Shown here piece after piece: positions 11,057-24,198 of a DNA stretch of 64,000 nt; position 1 is the stretch's first letter, and each line of letters opens with the position of its first letter. The notes below the pieces were generated by a model, which saw only the letters and a list, made by a program, of their open reading frames with translations, had not been told where the DNA came from and did no database searches. This DNA comes from Tigriopus japonicus (lineage: Eukaryota; Arthropoda; Copepoda; Harpacticoida; Harpacticidae), in contig CM021313.1 in NCBI GenBank assembly GCA_010645155.1, forward strand, positions 1,116,904 to 1,180,903, given 5' to 3'. The position numbers were made by a program, and so were the translations under genes.

Positions 11057-11362
11057 ATGTCCGCGTGGACCATTGCGTCCAACCGCCTGTTTCCGGTGTC
11101 CTCCAATGATGGGTCCTTGATAACGACCGATCCATTGACCACATTTGCCGATCTGTGGAAGGAACAAACTTGTGTCATCATATTCTTCCGACGATTTGGA
11201 TGACCATTTTGTCGGCTTGCGGCCCGAAAAATCTCGCAAGATATCGGTCCTCAAGCGCGCAAACACGGCATTCGACTGGTGGGCATTGGATTAGAGAAGC
11301 TCGGGGTGGAAGACTTTGTGGCCGGGAAGTTTTTCGAAGGTGAACTTTTCATTGATGCCGAG
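11057..11362 (+). CDS. PRXL2B: PRXL2B-like (prostamide/prostaglandin F synthase; SelU-related) selenoprotein, exon 1
   Basis: Encodes residues 1-102 of a 200-residue thioredoxin-fold protein. In mammals PRXL2B reduces prostaglandin H2 and prostamide H2 to their F2alpha forms with NADPH, in the cytosol; that activity is inferred here from family membership. Visible marks are the strand LWKEQTCVIIFFRRFG, the redox motif U49-P-F-C52, then GIRLVGIGLEKLG and FFEGELFIDAE, all collinear with the family. Codon 49 is TGA (11201-11203), aligned with the first cysteine of the family CxxC; the frame stays perfect on both sides. ATG 11057 has an A at -3 and gives the usual family length. The exon ends in phase 0 at GAG|GTAAGT. 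An old nonsense mutation is the main alternative, but no other lesion is present. Confidence 0.92.
11201..11203 (+). other. In-frame TGA, probable selenocysteine codon (Sec49)
   Basis: The TGA sits exactly at the catalytic first position of the CxxC redox motif (RRFG-TGA-PFC), giving UxxC as in selenoprotein U. The 53 codons to the splice donor and all 98 codons of exon 2 match the family without a break. A candidate SECIS hairpin in the 3' UTR supports decoding as selenocysteine. Confidence 0.85.
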
Positions 11363-12192
11363 GTAAGTTTGTTTCTCACACTCGAAAATTGTGGCAAACA
11401 ACTAAAGCTCAAAAAGCTCATTCAAACTCAACTTTAAGCCCATTCGAAGGCTTTACTCAAGGGTTACATAGACATCATTCTCCTTCCAAATGGGACGCAG
11501 AGAGCAATTTTGGGACTATATCTCTCAATTTGTATGCTAATTTGGATATGCGGACAACGAAAGTCATGCCATGAACGTAAGCCTTGCATGTGTATGGATC
11601 ACTTACAAAGCCGTTTAGTCGGTCCTAGTACTTGGTCCGCATTTATTTTTCCTTCGGCGTTTCCAAGGGCCCTCTTCGAAGTAGACCTCCCTCGGGAAAT
11701 GGCTACACTTTCAATTGCTATTTGCCAATTTCACCAAATGCAAGCCAGAAAAGAACTATAAGTGTCGCTTGTCCTTTTTTCTCCTAGAAATATAGAGGCT
11801 CTTATGATAAGATCTGAACCCAATAGGATTGTGTATATAATGTTGATGTGGGATAGTGACCGGATGAATCCAACAAAGCTTTTGTCTCATGTTAATTTTG
11901 CCGACTGAAGTGACCAGGGCCACCAAACTTGGGAATTTTTTTCTACCAGTTTTCTCATTAAGAGTGGTAGAAACTGACCGTTCCTACACTCGCATCAGCT
12001 TTAAGTCTCATTTCATAGCTTGGAATAGCTGATAAGCTAAAACATACTGTTACAACTGTAATAAATTCTCTCTGCTTCTTTTCTTATTTTGATTTTCCAT
12101 TCATTTTCCACATCATTCTGAACGGAACAAGCAATTTTCCCACATTTGCTTTAAAAAAAATTGTACTAAGGTTGAAGATTTTTGCAATTGCT

Positions 12193-12450
12193 AGGGCTCG
12201 GATAAAGTTGTTAAATGCTACTTGCGCCAAAAATCGCGGCTTTTGGTCATTTTAATCAAAATTAGCAACTTTTCGATTGTTTTCGGGACAAGTGGCACCT
12301 TTTGGGCTTTTTTTCCCTCGATCACTGAAATTCTGCGGAATTTTGCTCGAACTTTTAAATATGTACTTAACTCGTACTTTTCGGGACCTGTTCAAAGAAT
12401 CAATGTCTTTCTTTATTCTAGAATATTTCTAAAAGCTCTAGCACCCCCAA
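12193..12450. repeat. Degraded dispersed repeat, hAT-like end
   Basis: It begins TAGGGCTCGGATAAAGTTG. Similar starts occur at about 34387 (AAGGCTCGGATCAAGTTG) and, on the other strand, at about 60258 (TAGGGCTCGGAGTTGTTG). The shared head resembles a hAT terminus; its partner end was not found, so the boundary is approximate. Confidence 0.4.
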
Positions 12451-13068
12451 AGGCGCAAAGTGACCATACAAAAAGAGGTAGTAACAATTTTAATCTAAAA
12501 GGAATGAGAAATAAATAGGTGAATAAATAAATGTTTAAAAGTTCACAACATTAATACACTAGCGCAAGCACGCACATAGTCAAGGAGTAATGCGAATGAG
12601 GAAGGGTATTTAACTTCAAAGAGCCACCATCCATGATAAGTCGAGTGTTAAAAACATCCTTTACAACAAAAAAAAACCTGCAACTTTATGCCAAAAAACT
12701 CCAACTTCATCCCGGTCCCAGTGATTACGGTACATTGTAAAATGTAATTTACAACCATCTGGTGTCCCCTGGTCATGGCAAATCATGCAAAAAGGTAGTC
12801 TTTTTCGTACGGAGCAAAGAAGTTTGGTTCTAAGCTGCTTATAAAATTAGAGTCGTGTTAGAAATATCGACGTTTCTTTTTCAAATCTGACACGCCCTTG
12901 CCCTAGTTTAGAGAGAAAGGAATGACTCTGGAGAATCAAAAATGTAAAAATTAGAAAGCCTTTTAAAGCAAAAGGCCCTAACCATCGTAGCCTTGGTAGA
13001 GGTCATGATTAGAGTAAGATAGACTCAATGCTTACCAATGACCATAGGAAACCACTGTGAGCCAGTCC

Positions 13069-13226
13069 AGGGACCACTGTACGTCAGGACGAATTTCAAA
13101 AATACACACTGGGTCCGATCATTGTACTAAAATGTGAGGTTTGTGCAACAAATAAATTGTTCCGCTTAATTTTCATTGTACTAATCGGACCCAGTGTGTA
13201 TTTTGAAAGTCTTGAGCCATCCTTGG
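13069..13226 (+). mobile_element. MITE family A, copy 1
   Basis: A 158-bp element with an inner inverted pair: AATACACACTGGGTCCGAT on the left and its complement on the right, around an AT-rich loop. The outer parts CACTGTACGTCAGGACGAA and TTGAGCCATCCTTGG are shared with the copy at 58810-58975, which lies in the opposite orientation. It sits inside the PRXL2B-like intron. No coding capacity. Confidence 0.85.
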
Positions 13227-16200
13227 CCAGTCAGAAGTTGGGAAGTTCGTAAAGACATGCACATCATAAGGGTGCTTGGGGATACTGATAGGGGAAATCT
13301 AGAGTAGCTTGGTGGAGAAACCGGCTGAATTAAGAAGACGAAGAGGACGATGACTAGGAAGGTGAAGGCGAAAAAAGTTCAAATACTAAGTGTTTAGGTT
13401 GCCTAGGCGAGTCAAGGGTTACTTGGAGTAATGAAAGAGGACGATGTCGTTTGTTTGAGGCTTTTTTGGTTGACAACTGAGACCAGCCATCGAAAGTGAT
13501 TCAAGGTCAAATTGGATAATTCTTCCTTACAGTGATCATAAGCTAAGGGCCTTACTTGAGAACATGTTTAGTTTTATCCGTTTAGTTTCACTTTTCATTT
13601 TGAAAAATGTATTTTTGGTCTTTTTGATATACTGTAAATAATCTTCAGACAAGAGACTTTGAACCAAAGTGTTATCCTTTCTTCTTTTGGGGCATCTCCA
13701 AAACATCCCACCTCAAGAATAACATCCACATTTTTTCTGCTTGATATACAATCAATGTTTTGTTAATTCGATTGTTGGAACGATTATTTTGAGATAACCA
13801 AGTATATTTCGCCAGAAATATATATCCTTTTTGACATCTGTCACTCACTACAGCACATTTAACTTAGATCCCTTACACTTGGACTGACATCATTTGTCAA
13901 GGCAATACAAAATCTATTTCAAAGTCATCAAAAATGAATGCAAAATGATTTTCTTTTCTTACGGCAGGTTTCTGGTCTGAATTTGCAAGTTTATAATTCC
14001 CAAATATGGACTGCCATTACTTTAGTGGACTTTTTGTTACTTGATTCAAAAACCATTAAAGGGAAGAAAAAGTGCATATTTATGTAACTCAGAATCTATT
14101 TTTCGTTGGCCACAATTTTGCAAATGATGGCAAAATCCAAACGACTTTCTCCATTAGCTTGGTTTTAAACCAGGCTCTTGATACTATTTTGAGGCACCAA
14201 TACTAACCAAAATTAATTGTGCCAAGGTATCGCAATAGTTTTTGGTCTCTGATGACAAAGTTTTGGCTAGATCATTTTGGCGAACGCCATCTTTCTGCAT
14301 GTGTTAGTAGCAAAACAAAAGAATATGTGATTTTGCAGTTGTGGAACCGCCAAAGATTTGGAGATATTCCACATTGTCTGGTTTTTTGTTTACCATACCA
14401 AGCGATGCATCAAGCATGGAGAACGCCAAGCATTCTTTCAGTTTAGGTACATACTGTATAGTGTATAAACTCATCGAGTTTGGAAGCCGCAATGAAAAGT
14501 GAATTAGTTTGCCTCTCATTCCCAGATCATTACAATATAAATCACGTCGGGATTGTGGGAACAACATCAATACTGGTTGAACCAAAGAGCACACTACCTC
14601 TTTCTATCGGCTCTCATCACTATTCATCATGTTCAAGTGCTTTAGAAGAGAAGAGAACATTAATGAGATCCAATGAAGCTCTTGATGAGTTATTGGTTAT
14701 TTTTTAGGGCGGGTTTTTAGCTAGTGAAAATGCCAAGTTGATAATACATGATAAAATGAATAGAAATAGGGGAAAATGCCAATTGATAAAGGTGCAAGGA
14801 TAGCCATTTTTTGCAAGCATTTGGCTCCATCGGTTATTCATTTTCACAAATTGATTGGGATAAATTATACAAGCAACTGAGAAGCTCTTCTCAATTAGAG
14901 TTTTAATTGCAGAACTATTCCTGGTAAGTAAAACATGCAAAAACTGGAAATGTTCCATTTTGAAGCGATTTACTTGGAAACAATTTTTCATCAAATTCTT
15001 AAATCTCCAACAAACCATCACAGTCTGAATTTTTAACTTTTTGAATTCGAAATTTTGCTTCAGTGCACGTAAGAGTTTGAATGAGTGGAAATTTGGGGAT
15101 ATTGAAAAATTGAAGGGAGTGAATGAAAAGCTGACCAGAAAGAAGGTTCGAAAAACCAATCTTAAATTCAAAGTGAATACATATTCAGAATATTTTTTAA
15201 GTGGATCATCCAATGGGAGGGATTCCCATATCATATTAAGACCAATGGCATGGATTACGTTCGTTGAGGAGTATTGCAAAGTAATTTAGAAACAAAAAGA
15301 GGAATTGAAAACCTCTTTTTAAATAAATTAATTGCTTTCAGGTTTGTTTGCCCCAGGAGCAGGTCTCCTCTTGCCATATTTGCAAAGTCGGGCATTCCTG
15401 ATTCAAAAGTTTGGAAGAACTCTCTCAATTTCAGTGGTGAAATTTTAGATGATAGCGAAAAAAACTTTTCTTTCAAAAAATGTCAAGAATTGCCATTCAA
15501 ACTTCAATTTGTGCAGATGAGAAAGGAATTGTTGCAGTTACCAAGTTAAAATCTCCGTTTTATCTAACATTAACGCTCATCAGAAAAACGTCTTCCGAAC
15601 CTTTTCCCCGCGAAAATAAGCATGGTGAAATGTGACAAAAAGCTGAAAAAGACAAAATCAAATGTTGAATCAAAAAGATCCATCATCCATTGGATGCACT
15701 AATGTGTGGCTAAGTGAAGAATATACCATTGTATAATGTGTCCTTGTGCAAAACGTTAAACATTTAAAATGTTAAAAACATAAAAAAATAATGCAATGAT
15801 GATTTTCAAAATCTGGGAGTGTGGTCTCTTTTTCATAGTATACCAAATCTAACGTCACAATTAATCCCTCCCATAAACAAAAATGCTATACTTTCTCAAG
15901 AAAGACAATTTACTAATCAAGTAAATGTAACTTGGCAATACAAATTAACGCGTCTTGATCTTTTTTTAACTTCCCGATCGCCGTAATTTAAGAGGTTTCT
16001 TCGCTTCCAGTGATTTAAATCCGGCGTGATCCCTTGATTCAAGTGTGCTTGATTTACACCCTAAAACGAAAGTTATGTCGTAATCAGGGCCACCATGTCG
16101 TAATCACACTTTGAACCCAAAAACTACGGCAATGCGTGTGCCCCACAAAGTTTCTAGAATATTTTTGGATTAGGTAGGATGTAATTTTAAGACAAATAAG

Positions 16201-17144
16201 TCTGGCTTTAAGCTGTTGTAAAAAAATGTGAATAGCGGGAATCAAATCTTACTCGGTCTTGGAGAAAGGGGAGTGGTTTAGGCACACCTCCAAGCAAAAA
16301 TGACTGAGATATTTCTGTCCGCCATGATTCATGAGCTCATAGAATCTCATGCGTTCCTCAACAGTTAGACATGAGCATGGGCAAAGGAATGACAACTTAA
16401 AAATTGCAGATAAAATTTCACACTTAATACTTAATACTTCTCATAAAGTCCACACTTTCATCCCAAATGTCATTTCCAAGGATAGAGAGACAAATTGGAT
16501 GTAATTATTGGATGTACGGTCGTTCAAATCTATTCATACATATTGAAACTATTTTGGTTCAAAATTGCGACGAAACTTTCTTGTCAGGATGTACAAAGCA
16601 TTTCCGAGTCATGCAAACACAAAAAAATCCAATCTGCGCTCCATCAAAAACATACATTCTTGAGATGGAACACTTCAGTACAAGCTTTTATACTCCAATA
16701 TTGAGTGGTTTTGATCGATGGTGACATATCTGAACGACTCAAGATCAACAACACCCACTCACTTACATTTGGGAGCACAACGTAACGAGAAGTAGTCCAC
16801 GCACGCTGTTGGAAGTCTTATACAAATTTTGTCCTCGTTGTTGGTGAGTGATCCCATTTGTGCTAAGTTACCCGCTAGAATGCGCTCTCACGGCTTTTGT
16901 TCTTAAGCCACTTGCAAGATGATGCCACCCACAGTATTCATTTTATACTCGTCTTCAACACAGCCTTCTAAATGACTAGTGAGATGTTAAAAGAGCATTA
17001 AACATTCTAAGTTTTGTTGATCAGCTTGCAGGTCTGGCCATATTCAACAACCATTTCATTTCACAAATTAGTTCATGCTTTGGTAGAAGTTTCGTCAAGT
17101 AAATTTTGTTCATGATCATGGATCGAACCAAAAAGCACTGAAAA

Positions 17145-17556
17145 CTGGAGTGGGAGGCTAACGGTGAGAATTATGATTTCCAGAAGGATTAATTTCTTCT
17201 TCTGCAAACGAGACCTTGCTTGTATTCAGTAGACGACGTACTTCAATTTTCAGCTCAATCGAAGGGCGGAGTGAAAAGTTATGCCTTCTCAAACTTATGT
17301 ACTGAAGAGAGCATAGAATGAATGAATTCGCCCTTTTGTGGTAAAACGATTACCAGGAAAAGGGATCGTTCATTCCTTCTCGGTAAGATTTGCACTGAAC
17401 TTTGAGTGAGCATAACTCTTGACTCCGACGTTCGATTGAGCTGAAAATTGAAATACGTATTCTTGTCAACAAAGGTAAGGTCTCATTTGCAGAAAAAACG
17501 TAATTGAATCGTTCCTACTGGAAATCATGATTCCTCTTGCTAGCCTCCCAGTCCAG
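17145..17556. mobile_element. Foldback MITE family B, full copy with long arms
   Basis: Both ends read CTGGAGTGGGAGGCTA-like when turned to the same strand. The inverted arms are about 160-190 bp each, including TTTCAATTTTCAGCTCAATC on one side and its complement on the other. A possible short target duplication GAAA flanks it. A second copy is at 50505-50752 and an end fragment at 22540-22612. No open frame; it lies in the PRXL2B-like intron. Confidence 0.85.
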
Positions 17557-18212
17557 TGAAATTCAGGGGGTTCTTGATCGAACGCTACAGGTTCTAGACT
17601 TTCATGGTCTGCCAATGAAAACATAGGCTTCAGCAGCTGTTCCCGTGCCCTTCCAAAAATGTAAAAAAGGATCTAAACATTGAAACGAATTGTTCCAATG
17701 TGTTTTAAAATGCTGTTTTCAACTTTACTTGGGGTCAAAAGATATTTGAGACTTCATAGTAACAAAGTCTTTGTGCCGAATAGGTGCACTTGATGACTAC
17801 CTTAATCAAAATAGTTCAACCTTCACCATCTCAAAGGCCTTTTGATCAGATGCATTCTCTTTGGTGGTGAGTTTTGAGACATGCACAATAAACGCAAGTA
17901 GGGGATCAAATTGAATTGAAGCGACACTAATTTAATCCCATGCTGAACTCTTGCATTTTCACTTCTTTTGATCTACATATCAAAGCGTGTTTCTCTTTGC
18001 AAAATTTGTATCCTGAGGCCTCGATCACGGTCACTTTGTTCTTCCTGGCGTATCTAAAGCAAAAAGTTGTTAACATCCAACCATTGAGGAATGGACCTGG
18101 CCACAGCCAAGTCATGCCTTTCGAACAACTCAGAAAATATTAAAGCATTATTCCTCGCCTGATTTTCATATTGGTATTGATGTTGTATATCGGTATATCT
18201 TTTTTGACGCAG

Positions 18213-18509
18213 GATTGCCAAAGCTATCGCGACCTTGGCTTCCATCAGATGAGTGCTTTGGATCTCGTGCCTGGGTTATTGTCCCCTCAGGCCCTTTCGG
18301 CTGGCTTGAATGCCACACTTTCCGGTTTGGGCGGTAATATGTGGGGAAACGGAATGCAAAATGGTGGACTTCTAGTCGTGGAACGTGGAGGCAATAAAGT
18401 TCCTTTTTCTTTTCGTCAAAACCAACCGTCGGATCACCCGGATCGTAAAGCTATTTTAGATGCTCTCAACATTCCACAAGGGGAGCTTTCGGATGAGAGC
18501 TCTTCTTAA
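18213..18509 (+). CDS. PRXL2B: PRXL2B-like selenoprotein, exon 2 (C-terminal half)
   Basis: Encodes residues 103-200 and ends at TAA 18507-18509. The order DCQSYRDLGFHQMSALDLVP, SGLGGNMWGNGMQNGGLLVV, ERGGNKVPFSFRQ, SDHPDRKAILDALNI is the family's C-terminal half: a YxxLGF start, the G-N-xx-GxxxQ-GG-LLVV-GG core and the DH...IL-ALxI end. Splicing to exon 1 is in phase 0 and gives FIDAE-DCQSY, matching the family across the junction. The total of 200 residues is the usual PRXL2B length. The Ser/Glu-rich tail ELSDESSS is not conserved in the family as I know it. Confidence 0.93.
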   Translation, partial: DCQSYRDLGFHQMSALDLVPGLLSPQALSAGLNATLSGLGGNMWGNGMQNGGLLVVERGGNKVPFSFRQNQPSDHPDRKAILDALNIPQGELSDESSS

Positions 18510-18637
18510 CCCCATGCCAAGAAGAGCCCTAGATGGGATTCCCTACGTCGAATATAACCAACACGAACCACCAAGATTCTCGCCGTAAAATCCTTCTCTT
18601 TGAACGAATGGTTTACTGCAAAGAAGTTTTCTCGGTA

Positions 18638-18702
18638 CTCTTTATGAAAACAATGGAAGAAAAACTCGAAAGTTTCATTGTCGGATGATTCTGAACAAAG
18701 AG
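18638..18702 (+). promoter_or_regulatory. Candidate SECIS element in the 3' UTR
   Basis: The core begins ATGA (18644-18647). A non-Watson-Crick quartet can form: T18645-T18686, G18646-A18685, A18647-G18684, A18648-G18683. Above it, ACAATGGA (18650-18657) pairs with TTCATTGT (18674-18681) with one G-U. Unpaired adenines (18660-18663) start 12 nt after the quartet, where the conserved AA is expected. A small stem ACT/AGT (18664-18666 with 18671-18673) around CGAA gives a form 2 shape. Below, CTCTTT (18638-18643) can pair with AAAGAG (18697-18702), leaving an asymmetric loop. One A-C mismatch lies next to the quartet. It starts 135 nt after the stop codon. Confidence 0.72.
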
Positions 18703-18781
18703 ATTGCTTTTTTTGCATGTTTTTTTGCTACGTGACACTATTGTCCGCTCTTGGTTTCCAAAAATGTGGAATACATACAAA

Positions 18782-18787
18782 ATTAAA
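18782..18787 (+). promoter_or_regulatory. Possible polyadenylation signal ATTAAA
   Basis: A common variant of AATAAA, 273 nt after the PRXL2B-like stop and beyond the SECIS candidate, so the SECIS would lie within the mature mRNA. Cleavage position not determined. Confidence 0.45.
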
Positions 18788-20547
18788 CTTGACAGCTAAA
18801 TTATTCTACTTGGGTGTGAGCCTCTGGAACCCAAACAAGATTGAGATTGTACCATCATTATGGGGACCATTTGTATTCAAGATGGGCTTAGGGTTGAAGT
18901 GGCCACAACAAGGGACCTACCGTCACAGCAGATTTTCTCCATTATGTGGGTAAGCATTGCATATCTTCGAGCTTCTTCATTCCCCGCCTAAGGTCTGCTC
19001 TACGCAGCAATCGCTTGTTGTGTTGGCACTACTGGTGGACATAAACAACCATATATAGTACACTAAAATGTGTCCGTGGAAGTTGGTGCCACACAAGCAT
19101 ACACACCCACATGGGCCACAGAACACACGTCACCACAGATTCTTCGCACAAATGTCTTCGATGTCCCTGGAATGAGAAAGGACCCTTCACGGAACAGTCA
19201 CTAAGGTTAACCGGGTAAAAGGCCCCATCCTCGTGAGAGTGACCGACTCATCGTATACGAAACGTGAGCCTTGGTGTTATGGGAAAGGATGAAGATTCCC
19301 GTTCCTTTCTTCACTCTTTAAAGTTTTGGGGTTCCATTCGGTGCAAAAGTAGCGCCACCTAAAAATGGCTCCCAATCAAAAGGGAACAAGATGCCCATTC
19401 AGGTCGTCGGCTTGCATTGGGCCGCCTGATGAGGAAACAAATGGGTGCATTTTTTTCATTTCTCAGCGAGCAATCATCTTAATGGCCCCAAATCTCTCAT
19501 TTCAGTGGTCGTTGAAGTGAGTGGCACAATTGTTTTCCCAAGCGAAGATCCGTCCTAGGACAAAGAGAACAATTCTTCTTCAGTTCGTCCTCTTCTCGTG
19601 TGGAAAGAAGAGGTCCATCCATGTTTCTGGATCCCTGGAACCACCCAAGTGCAACCGGTCATAGCCCCCCCCCCCCGCTCCTCCGCCCCATCTTCCGATT
19701 TTAGAGAAAGGGTTGGTTGGTGTGAGAGAGAGGACATTATTTAACGGGAACAATATAACTGTCAGTCCCTATGATGTAGAAGCGCCCTGAACCCATAAAT
19801 TGTTTTCTGTGACATAGCCATGGCTCTCGCTCGATTTTAAAAGAGCGGCCTGAAAGGGTTTGTTATGTTCGTTCGTCTCCCTGTGCAGAGAATCAGGGCA
19901 CGAGTATGCACAAAATATCGTACTTTAACCTGAGTTATGGCCACTAAATCTGCTCTTAATGGTAAGGCTCATTTCAATATTGATTTTCAATCGTGCACGC
20001 AGAGTCTGGCGAGTCGGTCTCCACGGTTGGTTTGCCAAGGGTCTTTGCCGATGGTGGCATTAAAAATTGATGCAAAATACCAAGGGAAAGATAAACCGGT
20101 GGAATGGAGAGAGTTATCAAGCATTGTTTCCTTCTGAGGAAAATGACATGGTGGGAACAAAAGAGCTAACTCAATGATGTACAGTAGTATGTATGAACCA
20201 TGTTGGCTCTGCAAAGCATGGGGACCAAGGGAAAAGTCCTTGTTGGTGAAAATCCGTTCCAATTCCTACTTGTTTCTGTTGACAGAGAACACAGGAGGAA
20301 AAAGACCTCTGGTCTTCTCTGTTACACACTAGGTAGTCAAGCTCATCGCTCACCAGTCAAGCATCCCCCAGCGATTCCAGCTTTTATGAGAGGAACATGA
20401 TGAATAACTGAGCTGACTCTGTCACCATTAAATACAGTGTACAGTATAATATTGTTGTACGCAGTGTTGGTCTCGTACGACGGAACGACCGAGTGGAACA
20501 CTACATACTACTAGGTAAGCATGGAAGCCTTGGAGCGGAGAGTGAAT

Positions 20548-20562
20548 GACGACGACGACGAC

Positions 20563-20593
<31 letters not shown>

Positions 20594-20600
20594 GTGATGA
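20548..20600. repeat. (GAC)n(GAT)n compound microsatellite
   Basis: GAC units run directly into GAT units. It creates Ser-, Met- or Ile-rich chance frames that should not be annotated as genes. Confidence 0.95.
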
Positions 20601-22270
20601 AGCTTGTAATATTTGTTCTGAGAGGCCATGGAAAAGGTTCAACCAATAAAGAGCCGAGGTCTGCCTCACGGCGACGTAATCAACTCCAGATACAAATGCA
20701 GATACCAGACAATGACGAGCTCGTCTGTGACTCTGTGATGATCTCATTTTCTTTCGAAGCTCACAATTCTCGGAATGCAGATGAGTGAGGCTGTGGATAG
20801 GCACTTGTGTCACTTTATCATAAAAAAACTCTTCATTCCCAAAGAAGGTCGGTCCCTAGGGGTCATTTCATGATTCAATATATGAAAACTTCCTCTGGGT
20901 ATTGAGCTCTTCTTGAGGTTTATATCCAAACATATGGCAACAATGCCCTAAGAAGAAACCATGTCGTGTGTATTTTGAATGCAACGTGTTCTTGACATGT
21001 TCGTTCGGGCATGGATTGTCTCCCCGTGTATTTCTAATTGACATAAAGCCACGATTGATTTTGTTTCCAAGGCCTAGCTCTGTAAATCAAGGGCTTGGTT
21101 CCAATCAATGGAACCCACGGATGGCAAATATTGGTGTAAAACCCACTTTGGACACTTTGACAGAAGCACTTTAAACTCGAGCGTGGACTTTCCTCAACGT
21201 TCAACCAATCCTCCCACTAGTGCAGTTTTGAGCCGTTTCCTTCCAATAACATCACGGTCACCTCTTTGGCAAAAATCGGCCACATTCTCGTGAAATGAAC
21301 TTCTTGACGAGATTTTCGCAAAGAACCTGAAATTTGTTCGGGGAACTTACGTGAACGTGGTTTCATAGGCTTGCTGATGATTCTCCCACCCTTTGATAGT
21401 GGGCCGAGGTCATTTAATACGTGCCCTTTGAAGGGAATTTGCTTCTTGCCCGAGTGTCCTTATCATTTGTCAGTCGTTTCCTCGGTTTGGCACCGAAATT
21501 GAGTTGGCCTAGCCTTAGGTTGGACAAGCCTCAGGACATAAAGTTGTAATGAAAATATTTGGGCCGAGCCAAGGAAAGACGAGAGGTATATGAGAGGAAA
21601 ATCTTCTCCCTACGGCTTTTCATTCGGTCAGAGCTACCAAACTACTAAGGATTATTGGCGTGAAAATAGCAAGCGTGAATCCCAAATCCCGTGGGGGATG
21701 GCTTTTGGAGAAAATATCTAGCTAAGTGAGCTTTAATAATAAAACGCTTTTCTGATAAACAACTCCAGGGCCAGAGGTCAGTGCATCATCTAATGGCGGC
21801 AAAATAAATATTTGTCTTGCCCGTTTTCACAACAAGTTTTGAAAAGAGTTAACGCCGCGAAATGGGGGGAAGGAAGGGAAGAAAAGCAGGAAGAAGTGTA
21901 ATAGAGTACCACCTGGCAGAGGCACTTCCCTTCATCTGGTTGATTAGAAATAAGGTGGTTCTTTGGATCGTAACACATGAACTCAGTTCCAGCCTTATGG
22001 GAAAGTTGTGAGAGTGTGAGTGTAAGTAAGGCCGAATGCAAAACTTCCTCAGTTCGGAAATTCCTCTCCGTTGATTTCACACCAAGTTCAAATTCGAAAA
22101 AGATGATGTGCATAATCGACTGGCAGAATGGCACTTTGACATTAATTGCTTACCTATTCATACGAGTTTAGAAACATTTGCCAGTGGCTGAGGGCATTCG
22201 GAAGGAAAGTGGAAGCATGTGTAGAACTATGTCCTGCACTATATTCCAAATACCCTTAACAACTTACCTA

Positions 22271-22366
22271 GGAAGCCAGAGTGGCCACGTGTACTAGCGC
22301 GTTCTTAAAAGTGCCGAGTTTGCTCGTGCGTCCCCAGACGGTGTAGGTTCGAATCCTGTTGGGGAT
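22271..22366 (+). repeat. tRNA-derived SINE-like sequence
   Basis: It carries a perfect B box, GGTTCGAATCC (22346-22356), an A-box-like stretch in AGAGTGGCCACGTGTACTAG, and a variable-arm-like hairpin CGTC-CCCA-GACG typical of Leu/Ser tRNAs. The acceptor strands do not pair, so it is not a functional tRNA gene. It is best read as a tRNA-derived SINE head or tRNA pseudogene; the tail is not defined. Confidence 0.6.
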
Positions 22367-22539
22367 CGGATTGAAGCTATTGGGATAAATCCTAGTATCT
22401 TCTAAAGTCGATATGAACAGCGGAAAGTTCGTACTGAAGTTGGATAAGTGTATCTAAAGACCAATATCTTATTTTTGTAAATACATCTTGTGAATCAAAG
22501 CCTATGTTTTGAGTCAATATTTTACCATTAGAGTTGCCA

Positions 22540-22612
22540 TTTGCGAAAGGATGTAATTGATTTGATCCCACTGGAAATCATCATTTTCATCGTTAGCCTC
22601 CCACTCCAGGCT
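22540..22612 (+). mobile_element. Foldback MITE family B, end fragment
   Basis: The stretch from CTGGAAATCATCATT to GTTAGCCTCCCACTCCAG matches the right end of the 17145-17556 element and the 50505-50752 copy. Only the terminal 70 bp is recognisable. Confidence 0.75.
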
Positions 22613-24198
22613 TCTTGAATCGTGCTATGATTAAATTACAATTCAAGAAGAACCTTCCGTGCCGAGACAACCCATAAGTCCAAAGAATACATCTGAAAGG
22701 GAACAAGACTGGTGATTGTCATTTTTCATCACAAATGGTTCTTATCTTTTCCCAACCTGGTTGAGGCGCTCGAAATGTTCCAATCAGGCAAGCCCATCCG
22801 TATTTCATGAAAGGTACAATACTAGTAGTAAACGTGGTCCGCATTGCAAAAAGGCCAAGAATACCCAAGCTTGTGCATGCACTATGTAATGTTGGGATGA
22901 CCGAGACATGTCAGTGTTCGCACTACTCTGTGCTCATGCAATGTGGGAAAGGCCTTTAAGAAGGCCCTATCCATAAAAAGTTTTCGAGTGACCCACTCGG
23001 GCGTGTTAACGGGGCGGGAACGTGTGAAAACAGACACCCACTGCATTCTCGGATCATCGCCATCGTGACTTATTGCACGCTACCAGAGAAAGCGAGATGG
23101 GTAGTGTGATCAGTAGAGGACGGATTTAAACGTGACTTTCCGTGGTCATAAACAGACCAAAGTGTGTGATCGATGTAATGCATCCAAGAAAAGACAGACA
23201 TTAGTCTTGTGTAGTAATCCACTCGAAATAAATACATGTGTTTTATCACGTCAAACTTCATCCTCTTCCCGAACACTGTTGAACTTTGTTACCTTCTCAT
23301 TCTTTCTCTAATAATAATAATCAAGTTAGTTGCAACAACAACTATAGTAACGCGAACTCGGTTTTATGGTTTGTAACATGCTTGGAAAATGTGTTGCTGG
23401 ATCGTGATGGGGTTGCCTCGAGCTTTTAGTGCACACCGGGCAAAAATAGAACGATCCTTCTTATTTTCATTTTTTTTCAAATACCAATTAAGTAGATTGC
23501 TTACTTCAATTACTAGAAATGTGGCAGGGGTTTTCTAGACCCATTACAGCTGGTTGTTGTAAAGGGATACCTTAAAAATATGATTCACTTCAGCCGTACA
23601 GTAAACCTGCTCGCCCAAAAAAATAGGATTCATTGGCTATGAATGGCCTGCAGGGTATTGGTCTTTATGAATATCATATGAATAATCTCTCCCTGACGGA
23701 GGTGTCGAGGAAACATGCAGTACTGAATCAGAAAAGAAACGAGAATGGAGAGGGGAATGAAAAGGCTCTTAATCCAGCGCCACAATGCGTCTGATCCTGA
23801 TGAACTGGAATCAACGCTCCTTTACTTGTTTGGTTCGCCAAGGCCTTCCTTTGGCCTTCTTCGTCGGGCTAGATTGTGATTATGTGCCTTCTGATCTCGG
23901 CGTCAAGCGTTTCTCTATTCCAAACCAAGTAGTGCCCAGCCAGTTATTCTTAGAGGCTAGTAGATCCACAATTTTGGCGACGATCCTCTCTTCTTCTTCC
24001 TCCTTCTTCTTCTTTTCTTTTGGTACCCGTGCTCGTGGTGGTGATAGTGAGGAAAATGCTTTAGAGAAGGAACTACTAGAGGTAAAACAAGACACTGAGC
24101 CAGACGACGAACGAACGAAGGCCTTAAGCAACGAGGGAGACATTTGGCGACGCTTGCGAAGTGAATCGAAAACACGATCCAAGCAAGAAGAAACTTGA

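What the first reader, a model, noticed from the sequence alone, without database searches (positions are those of the whole stretch)
11057..18509. Probable selenoprotein: PRXL2B/SelU-like prostamide synthase with TGA at the catalytic position
A two-exon, 200-residue PRXL2B-family protein is intact except for one TGA (11201-11203), which replaces the first cysteine of the CxxC redox motif (RRFG-U-PFC). Seen: perfect frame on both sides, consensus splice sites, phase-0 junction and normal family length. Known: selenoprotein U relatives use UxxC at this site, and many PRXL2B proteins have CxxC. Inferred: selenocysteine is inserted, which would make this an arthropod-type Sec form of prostamide/prostaglandin F synthase. 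I do not recall a described Sec form of PRXL2B in such an animal, but it may exist in selenoproteome surveys.
Basis: partly seen in the sequence, partly recalled or inferred. Interest (0 to 1): 0.92.

Follow-up and report, generated by a model that had tools for sequence, protein, structure and literature searches.

The report
Copepod prostamide-synthase-like selenoprotein gene
A two-exon redox-enzyme gene in a copepod-like genome carries one in-frame TGA at its catalytic site that is almost certainly read as selenocysteine, making it another member of a selenoprotein family already known from invertebrates.

Summary
The finding is right. Exons 11057-11362 and 18213-18509 join in phase 0 into a 200-residue PRXL2B-type protein whose only internal stop, TGA 11201-11203, sits where human PRXL2B has the first Cys of CxxC. 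New support for selenocysteine: (1) a SECIS-like element at 18636-18697, 126 nt past the stop; at 19.3 bits it is the weakest of four found here and below Rfam's gathering score of 35; (2) tRNA-Sec(TCA), SepSecS, eEFSec and SBP2 in the same genome; (3) a second PRXL2B gene on contig 38 with TGA at the same codon and a 27.6-bit SECIS. Tigriopus californicus models skip these residues, Daphnia and krill models start at the next codon, and 29 of 114 database relatives, all unnamed, show Trp there, as expected if TGA is shared. An unnamed database protein, identical over 125 residues, crosses the splice junction. Sec-form PRXL2B ("SelU3") was reported from invertebrates in 2012 (PMC3473315), so this is a new member of a known kind. 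Sec incorporation is inferred, not shown.

The parts
11057..11362 (+). Exon 1: residues 1-102, holds RRFG-U-PFC
11201..11203 (+). In-frame TGA, codon 49, read as selenocysteine (inferred); first position of the CxxC redox motif
   Evidence: aligned to Cys of human PRXL2B; same codon is TGA in the C38 paralogue
11210..11212 (+). TGT, Cys52, likely resolving partner in U-x-x-C (role inferred)
   Evidence: invariant column in the 14-row alignment A2
11363..18212 (+). Intron, phase 0, GT...AG, 6850 nt
   Evidence: junction crossed by database protein P0003
18213..18509 (+). Exon 2: residues 103-200 and TAA stop
   Evidence: AhpC-TSA_2 hit in the whole-genome scan
18636..18697 (+). SECIS-like element in the presumed 3' UTR: ATGA 18644-18647, 9-bp helix, A-rich apical loop, GGAT core ending 18686
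   Evidence: Rfam SECIS_1 19.3 bits (gathering 35), E 0.37 over 4227 families and 391 bases; own scans
18782..18787 (+). ATTAAA, first possible polyadenylation signal after the stop, downstream of the SECIS-like element

Best explanation
The gene encodes a Sec-containing PRXL2B (SelU3) redox protein. The spliced mRNA carries UGA at codon 49 and a SECIS hairpin in its 3' UTR; SBP2 on the SECIS brings eEFSec with Sec-tRNA(Sec), so the ribosome inserts selenocysteine instead of stopping. The product is a 200-residue thioredoxin-fold enzyme with a U-P-F-C active site, in which Sec49 is the attacking residue and Cys52 the resolving one. Shown by sequence: frame, junction, the TGA-Cys correspondence, SECIS-like element, machinery genes, a second Sec-type paralogue. 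Inferred: actual Sec insertion, the catalytic roles, and the substrate (peroxides and/or prostaglandin H2-type endoperoxides).
For: One internal stop only, TGA, at the catalytic Cys. SECIS_1 match over model positions 1-64 of 64, 126 nt past the stop, on the sense strand; my own scan had picked the same place before that Rfam call. tRNA-Sec 79.9 bits, the only one of 17 listed matches over the cut-off, anticodon TCA; SepSecS, best exon 2.5e-89; eEFSec; SBP2 L7Ae domain, best PDB match 7zjw_B at 1.4e-23. C38 paralogue with TGA at the same codon and SECIS_1 27.6 bits. Same genome: a GPX with NTASL-TGA-GTT and SECIS 31.1 bits, and a SelL-like gene with TGA-CTT-CCG-TGA and SECIS 26.0 bits. Of 114 database relatives: 60 show Cys, 29 Trp, 10 begin at the codon after the Sec position; of the other 15, T. 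californicus P0002 and P0012 and Brachionus P0061 lack the stretch around it. Check on PRXL2A, whose Sec form in fish, birds and reptiles is published: five bird, gar, bowfin and gecko-group models lack the same site, and one 'lgn' protein has Trp there.
Against: The window's SECIS score is below Rfam's gathering score and the weakest of the four seen here. In the first scan 11 other places on the + strand have stronger stems; in the second, 8 other places in 128 kb of strand score as well or better, about 1 in 16 kb, so chance alone would put one within the first 300 nt in roughly 2 of 100 cases. The free RNA fold kept helix 2 in only 1 of 4 stretches tried. No nucleotide sequence of another species was available, so TGA in relatives is inferred from how their proteins are cut or read; missing motifs are not specific, since 7 of the 19 PRXL2A rows without the motif are mammals. 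No protein evidence.
Confidence: 0.95

Rival explanations
1. The TGA is a disabling mutation and the gene is a pseudogene making a 48-residue stub.
For: TGA is a stop in the standard code; the window's SECIS is the weakest of those found here.
Against: No other lesion in 603 nt, intact splice sites; 92% identity over 156 columns to T. californicus P0002; the paralogue has TGA at the same codon; Sec machinery present.
Confidence: 0.03
2. Assembly or sequencing error: the real codon is TGT or TGC.
For: A single base would do it; raw reads are not available here.
Against: Two separate loci (C10 and C38) carry TGA at the same codon; the T. californicus models of both genes omit this stretch; P0003, identical over 125 residues, starts at the first start-type codon after the TGA.
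Confidence: 0.01
3. UGA is read through as Trp or another amino acid without selenium.
For: 29 of 114 database relatives show Trp at this position; UGA followed by C is a leaky context (recalled).
Against: Those Trp rows come from unnamed jgi, lgn and ena sources, fitting gene callers that read TGA as Trp (inference; their DNA was not seen); Trp would remove the attacking residue; the Sec position of PRXL2A shows Trp in one 'lgn' row too; SECIS-like element and Sec machinery present.
Confidence: 0.01

Closest known systems
Selenoprotein U3 (SelU3), Sec form of PRXL2B / prostamide-prostaglandin F synthase, in invertebrates (PMC3473315, section 8 read, other passages seen)
   Same: Same subfamily by alignment and naming; Sec in place of the first Cys of CxxC; found in non-deuterostome animals
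   Different: That section names no arthropod; here the host is a Tigriopus-like copepod (inferred) with two Sec-type copies
Selenoprotein U1 (PRXL2A, Sec in fish and birds; PMC3316567 and PMC2375036, passages seen)
   Same: Same AhpC-TSA_2 family and same Sec position
   Different: Five PRXL2A rows form a separate side of the tree, 100/100; motif RRPG-C-FLC rather than RRFG-U-PFC
Human PRXL2B (PDB 9us9, 9usa; sequences only)
   Same: Aligned over residues 28-190, E 2.8e-36
   Different: Cys instead of Sec in the redox motif (Ser in entry 9usa)

Membership tests
Eukaryotic selenoprotein | In-frame UGA aligned with Cys or Sec in homologues | tested here: met
Eukaryotic selenoprotein | SECIS element in the 3' UTR | tested here: met
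   SECIS_1 aligned end to end at 18636-18697 with AUGA, AA loop and GAU core, but 19.3 bits against a gathering score of 35; three other SECIS of this genome score 26.0-31.1, also below it. Function not tested
Eukaryotic selenoprotein | Host has tRNA-Sec, SepSecS, eEFSec, SBP2 | tested here: met
   selenophosphate synthetase search not answered; PSTK not searched
Eukaryotic selenoprotein | Selenium physically incorporated | not testable with these tools
   needs 75Se labelling or mass spectrometry
PRXL2B (SelU3) | AhpC-TSA_2 domain and about 200 residues | tested here: met
PRXL2B (SelU3) | Groups with PRXL2B rather than PRXL2A | tested here: met
   35-row tree, PRXL2A set apart at 100/100; midpoint root, long-branch warning, PRXL2C not included
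PRXL2B (SelU3) | Prostamide/prostaglandin F synthase activity | not testable with these tools
   needs an enzyme assay

The most novel reading that the evidence does not exclude
Sec is the ancestral state of PRXL2B in crustaceans; copepods keep two old Sec-type copies (window clade and C38 clade), spiders and a mayfly carry Cys forms by separate changes, and standard annotation has hidden the Sec forms across crustaceans and rotifers.
Probability: 0.6. Interest if true: 0.4.

Novelty: new member of a known kind. Interest (0 to 1): 0.33.

Why it matters
It adds a selenoprotein to what looks like a Tigriopus copepod, a genus used in toxicology and evolution studies (recalled), shows that public gene models of this enzyme in T. 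californicus, Daphnia and krill are probably wrong at the active site, and suggests that a prostaglandin-family enzyme is selenium-dependent in several crustaceans. It does not add a new mechanism.

Tried and rejected
Rfam on 15 kb around the gene listed no SECIS: a 19.3-bit match falls below the listing limit for that length, so the scan was repeated on 391 bases. A whole-genome SECIS_1 search gave no hit at E <= 0.001 in 195 Mb, which the tool itself says does not show absence. A scan of viral contigs gave one spurious match in a contig without a PRXL2B-like gene at the place read. MAFFT misaligned three SECIS elements, so no covariance model was built; a pattern-and-energy scan replaced it. 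On the gene's strand it ranked the elements of the paralogue, GPX and SelL first in their loci, but it is not very specific. Rfam listed a SECIS near only 1 of 4 GPX loci and not at the Rdx locus on C8; matches under roughly 20-21 bits (my estimate) would not be listed in scans of that size, and the gene ends of those loci were not worked out. The second Rdx hit (C1) was not scanned. NCBIfam's nearest model, SelL_rel_redox, is far below its cut-off (54.2 against 120 bits). Ten paper searches listed no paper that I could recognise as reporting an arthropod Sec-PRXL2B; I opened five of the listed papers (PMC3473315, PMC3316567, PMC5330540, PMC4244043, PMC2375036) and saw passages, in PMC3473315 also one whole section. 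The library lacks most subscription papers and supplementary tables could not be read, so a listing there is possible. No structure was predicted.
Full report
What is there. The window lies at C10:1116904-1180903 of a 194.85 Mb genome in 158 contigs. The gene runs from ATG 11057 to TAA 18507-18509. Exon 1 is 11057-11362, the intron 11363-18212 with GTAAGT and ...TTTTTTGACGCAG, exon 2 18213-18509. The joined frame is 603 nt with one internal stop, TGA 11201-11203 at codon 49 of 200. phmmer against the PDB sequences aligns residues 28-190 to human prostamide/prostaglandin F synthase (PRXL2B, 9us9, E 2.8e-36), and codon 49 falls on the first Cys of RRFG-C-VV-C. The motif here is RRFG-U-PFC.

Whose gene. 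The best named relative is TCAL_00697 (P0002) of Tigriopus californicus, 92% identical over 156 columns. An unnamed 'lgn' protein, P0003, is identical over 125 residues.

Transcription and splicing. P0003 crosses the exon junction and begins at GTG codon 75, the only ATG/GTG/TTG codon in frame between the TGA and that point. This fits a transcript assembly whose gene caller met the TGA as a stop. That 'lgn' stands for an assembly of public read sets is recalled, not shown by a call.

SECIS. My first scan for a non-Watson-Crick core (NTGAN ... AA/CC ... GA) with a helix picked 18644 as the strongest by stem energy of 7 listed rows in 18510-24000, three of those rows being the same place; 11 other places on the whole + strand of the window have stronger stems. 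Rfam on 18510-18900 gave SECIS_1 at 18636-18697, model positions 1-64 of 64, 19.3 bits, E 0.37 for all 4227 families together, or about 9e-5 if only this family is counted (my division). A second, stricter scan found 8 other places as good or better in 128 kb of strand and none other as good in 18510-20510. The minimum-energy RNA fold kept helix 2 in 1 of 4 stretches. So the element is credible by place and form but not overwhelming by score. The first ATTAAA after the stop is at 18782.

Machinery. The genome holds tRNA-Sec at 79.9 bits, the only one of 17 listed matches over the cut-off, anticodon TCA. SepSecS appears in three exon-wise hits, best 2.5e-89; the third hit has one TGA inside, not followed up. 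eEFSec: domain 4 at 2.8e-31, with a GTPase-domain peptide of the same locus matching 5izk at 1.7e-40. An L7Ae-type domain on C6 matches SBP2 (7zjw_B) at 1.4e-23, against 1.3e-4 for the next protein. Selenophosphate synthetase could not be searched; PSTK was not searched.

The paralogue. Contig 38 holds a four-exon gene, ATG 372865 on the minus strand, whose joined frame has one internal stop, TGA at 372681-372679, again RRFG-U-PFC. The raw hit also listed a further TGA and a TAG; these lie in the intron just before exon 2. Its 3' UTR has SECIS_1 at 27.6 bits, E 0.0021 over all families. It is the counterpart of T. californicus P0012.

Other selenoproteins of the genome as controls. A GPX on C4 reads NTASL-TGA-GTT with a SECIS of 31.1 bits. 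A gene on C12, found as the other AhpC-TSA_2 hit, reads LILLRHFA-TGA-CTT-CCG-TGA with a SECIS match of 26.0 bits soon after its stop; U-x-x-U is the diselenide motif of SelL (recalled; one search shows only SelL in a table and the title of a paper on a diselenide selenoprotein family). Three other GPX loci and one Rdx locus gave no listed SECIS.

Relatives. Two searches returned 114 database proteins of this family (P0002-P0115; only 7996 candidates were scored). At the Sec position 60 show Cys and 29 Trp (28 by pattern plus P0027, read by eye). Ten begin with one residue and then FCR, i.e. at the codon after the Sec position; among the named are Daphnia sinensis, Daphnia pulex, Meganyctiphanes norvegica and Hyalella azteca ('partial'). 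The other 15 include T. californicus P0002 and P0012, which lack the stretch, P0004, whose first part is unrelated, Brachionus P0061, fragments starting further on, one fungal row (P0101), and two rows (P0076, P0080) that my pattern caught outside the motif. I read them as TGA translated as Trp by gene callers; their DNA could not be fetched. A caution on the Cys rows: the database may write Sec as Cys, since a grouse PRXL2A shows Cys although bird SelU1 is published as Sec; so 60 is an upper bound for true Cys.

Check of this reading on PRXL2A. That search (best 120 of 548 listed) holds 100 Cys, 1 Trp ('lgn') and 19 without the motif. Of the 19 I looked closely at five, two birds, gar, bowfin and a gecko-group lizard, and all five lack the residues around the site; Sec in fish, bird and reptile SelU1 is published (PMC3473315; PMC2375036). 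But 7 of the 19 are mammals (by the names), whose form is Cys, so a missing motif by itself does not prove Sec. Named rows with Cys in PRXL2B are the spiders Trichonephila, the mayfly Cloeon, two mammals, a rotifer (Didymodactylos), a chytrid-like protist (Aplanochytrium) and many entomophthoralean fungi.

Tree. 35 rows, 206 columns: five PRXL2A rows stand apart at 100/100; the window gene pairs with T. californicus P0002 (100/99) and, with P0010 and P0024, forms a clade (100/98) distinct from the C38 gene and P0012 (100/99). So the two copies are older than the split of the two Tigriopus. The tool warns of long branches between fungi and PRXL2A; PRXL2C was not included.

Comparison with print. 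[quoted passage not shown] this places Sec-PRXL2B in invertebrates in 2012. PMC3316567 (passages) found Sec only in SelU1 among vertebrates. PMC5330540 (passages) counts 17 selenoproteins in Lepeophtheirus salmonis, a copepod, and 16 in Daphnia pulex without naming families in the passages seen. PMC4244043 (passages) gives 20 for a centipede, its table not readable here. The exact gene may therefore already stand in such a table.

Verdict. It is a new member of a known kind, of moderate interest, most of it in the probable mis-annotation of crustacean PRXL2B and in the two Sec-type copies.

Noticed in passing
L038 8131-8166 (C12:7362630 on), SECIS at L038 9139-9201: SelL-like gene with two in-frame TGA in the redox motif (TGA-CTT-CCG-TGA, U-L-P-U) and a SECIS_1 match of 26.0 bits soon after its stop.
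   Followed up: partly
L029, C38:372865-371738 minus strand: Second PRXL2B gene with TGA at the same codon and SECIS_1 of 27.6 bits.
   Followed up: yes
L035 (C4:904780 on): GPX with NTASL-TGA-GTT and a SECIS_1 match of 31.1 bits; three more GPX loci (C1, C2, C22) have hits with one TGA and one further stop each, not worked out.
   Followed up: partly
window 13085-13218: Inverted repeat with arms around ATACACACTGGGTCCGAT in the intron; Rfam shows only miRNA-family matches far below their gathering scores, so it may be a small foldback transposon (inference).
   Followed up: no
P0005-P0008, P0011, P0026-P0034 and others: 29 of 114 database PRXL2B relatives carry Trp at the Sec position, probably TGA read as Trp by gene callers; if so, a cheap way to find hidden selenoproteins in metagenome protein sets.
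   Followed up: partly
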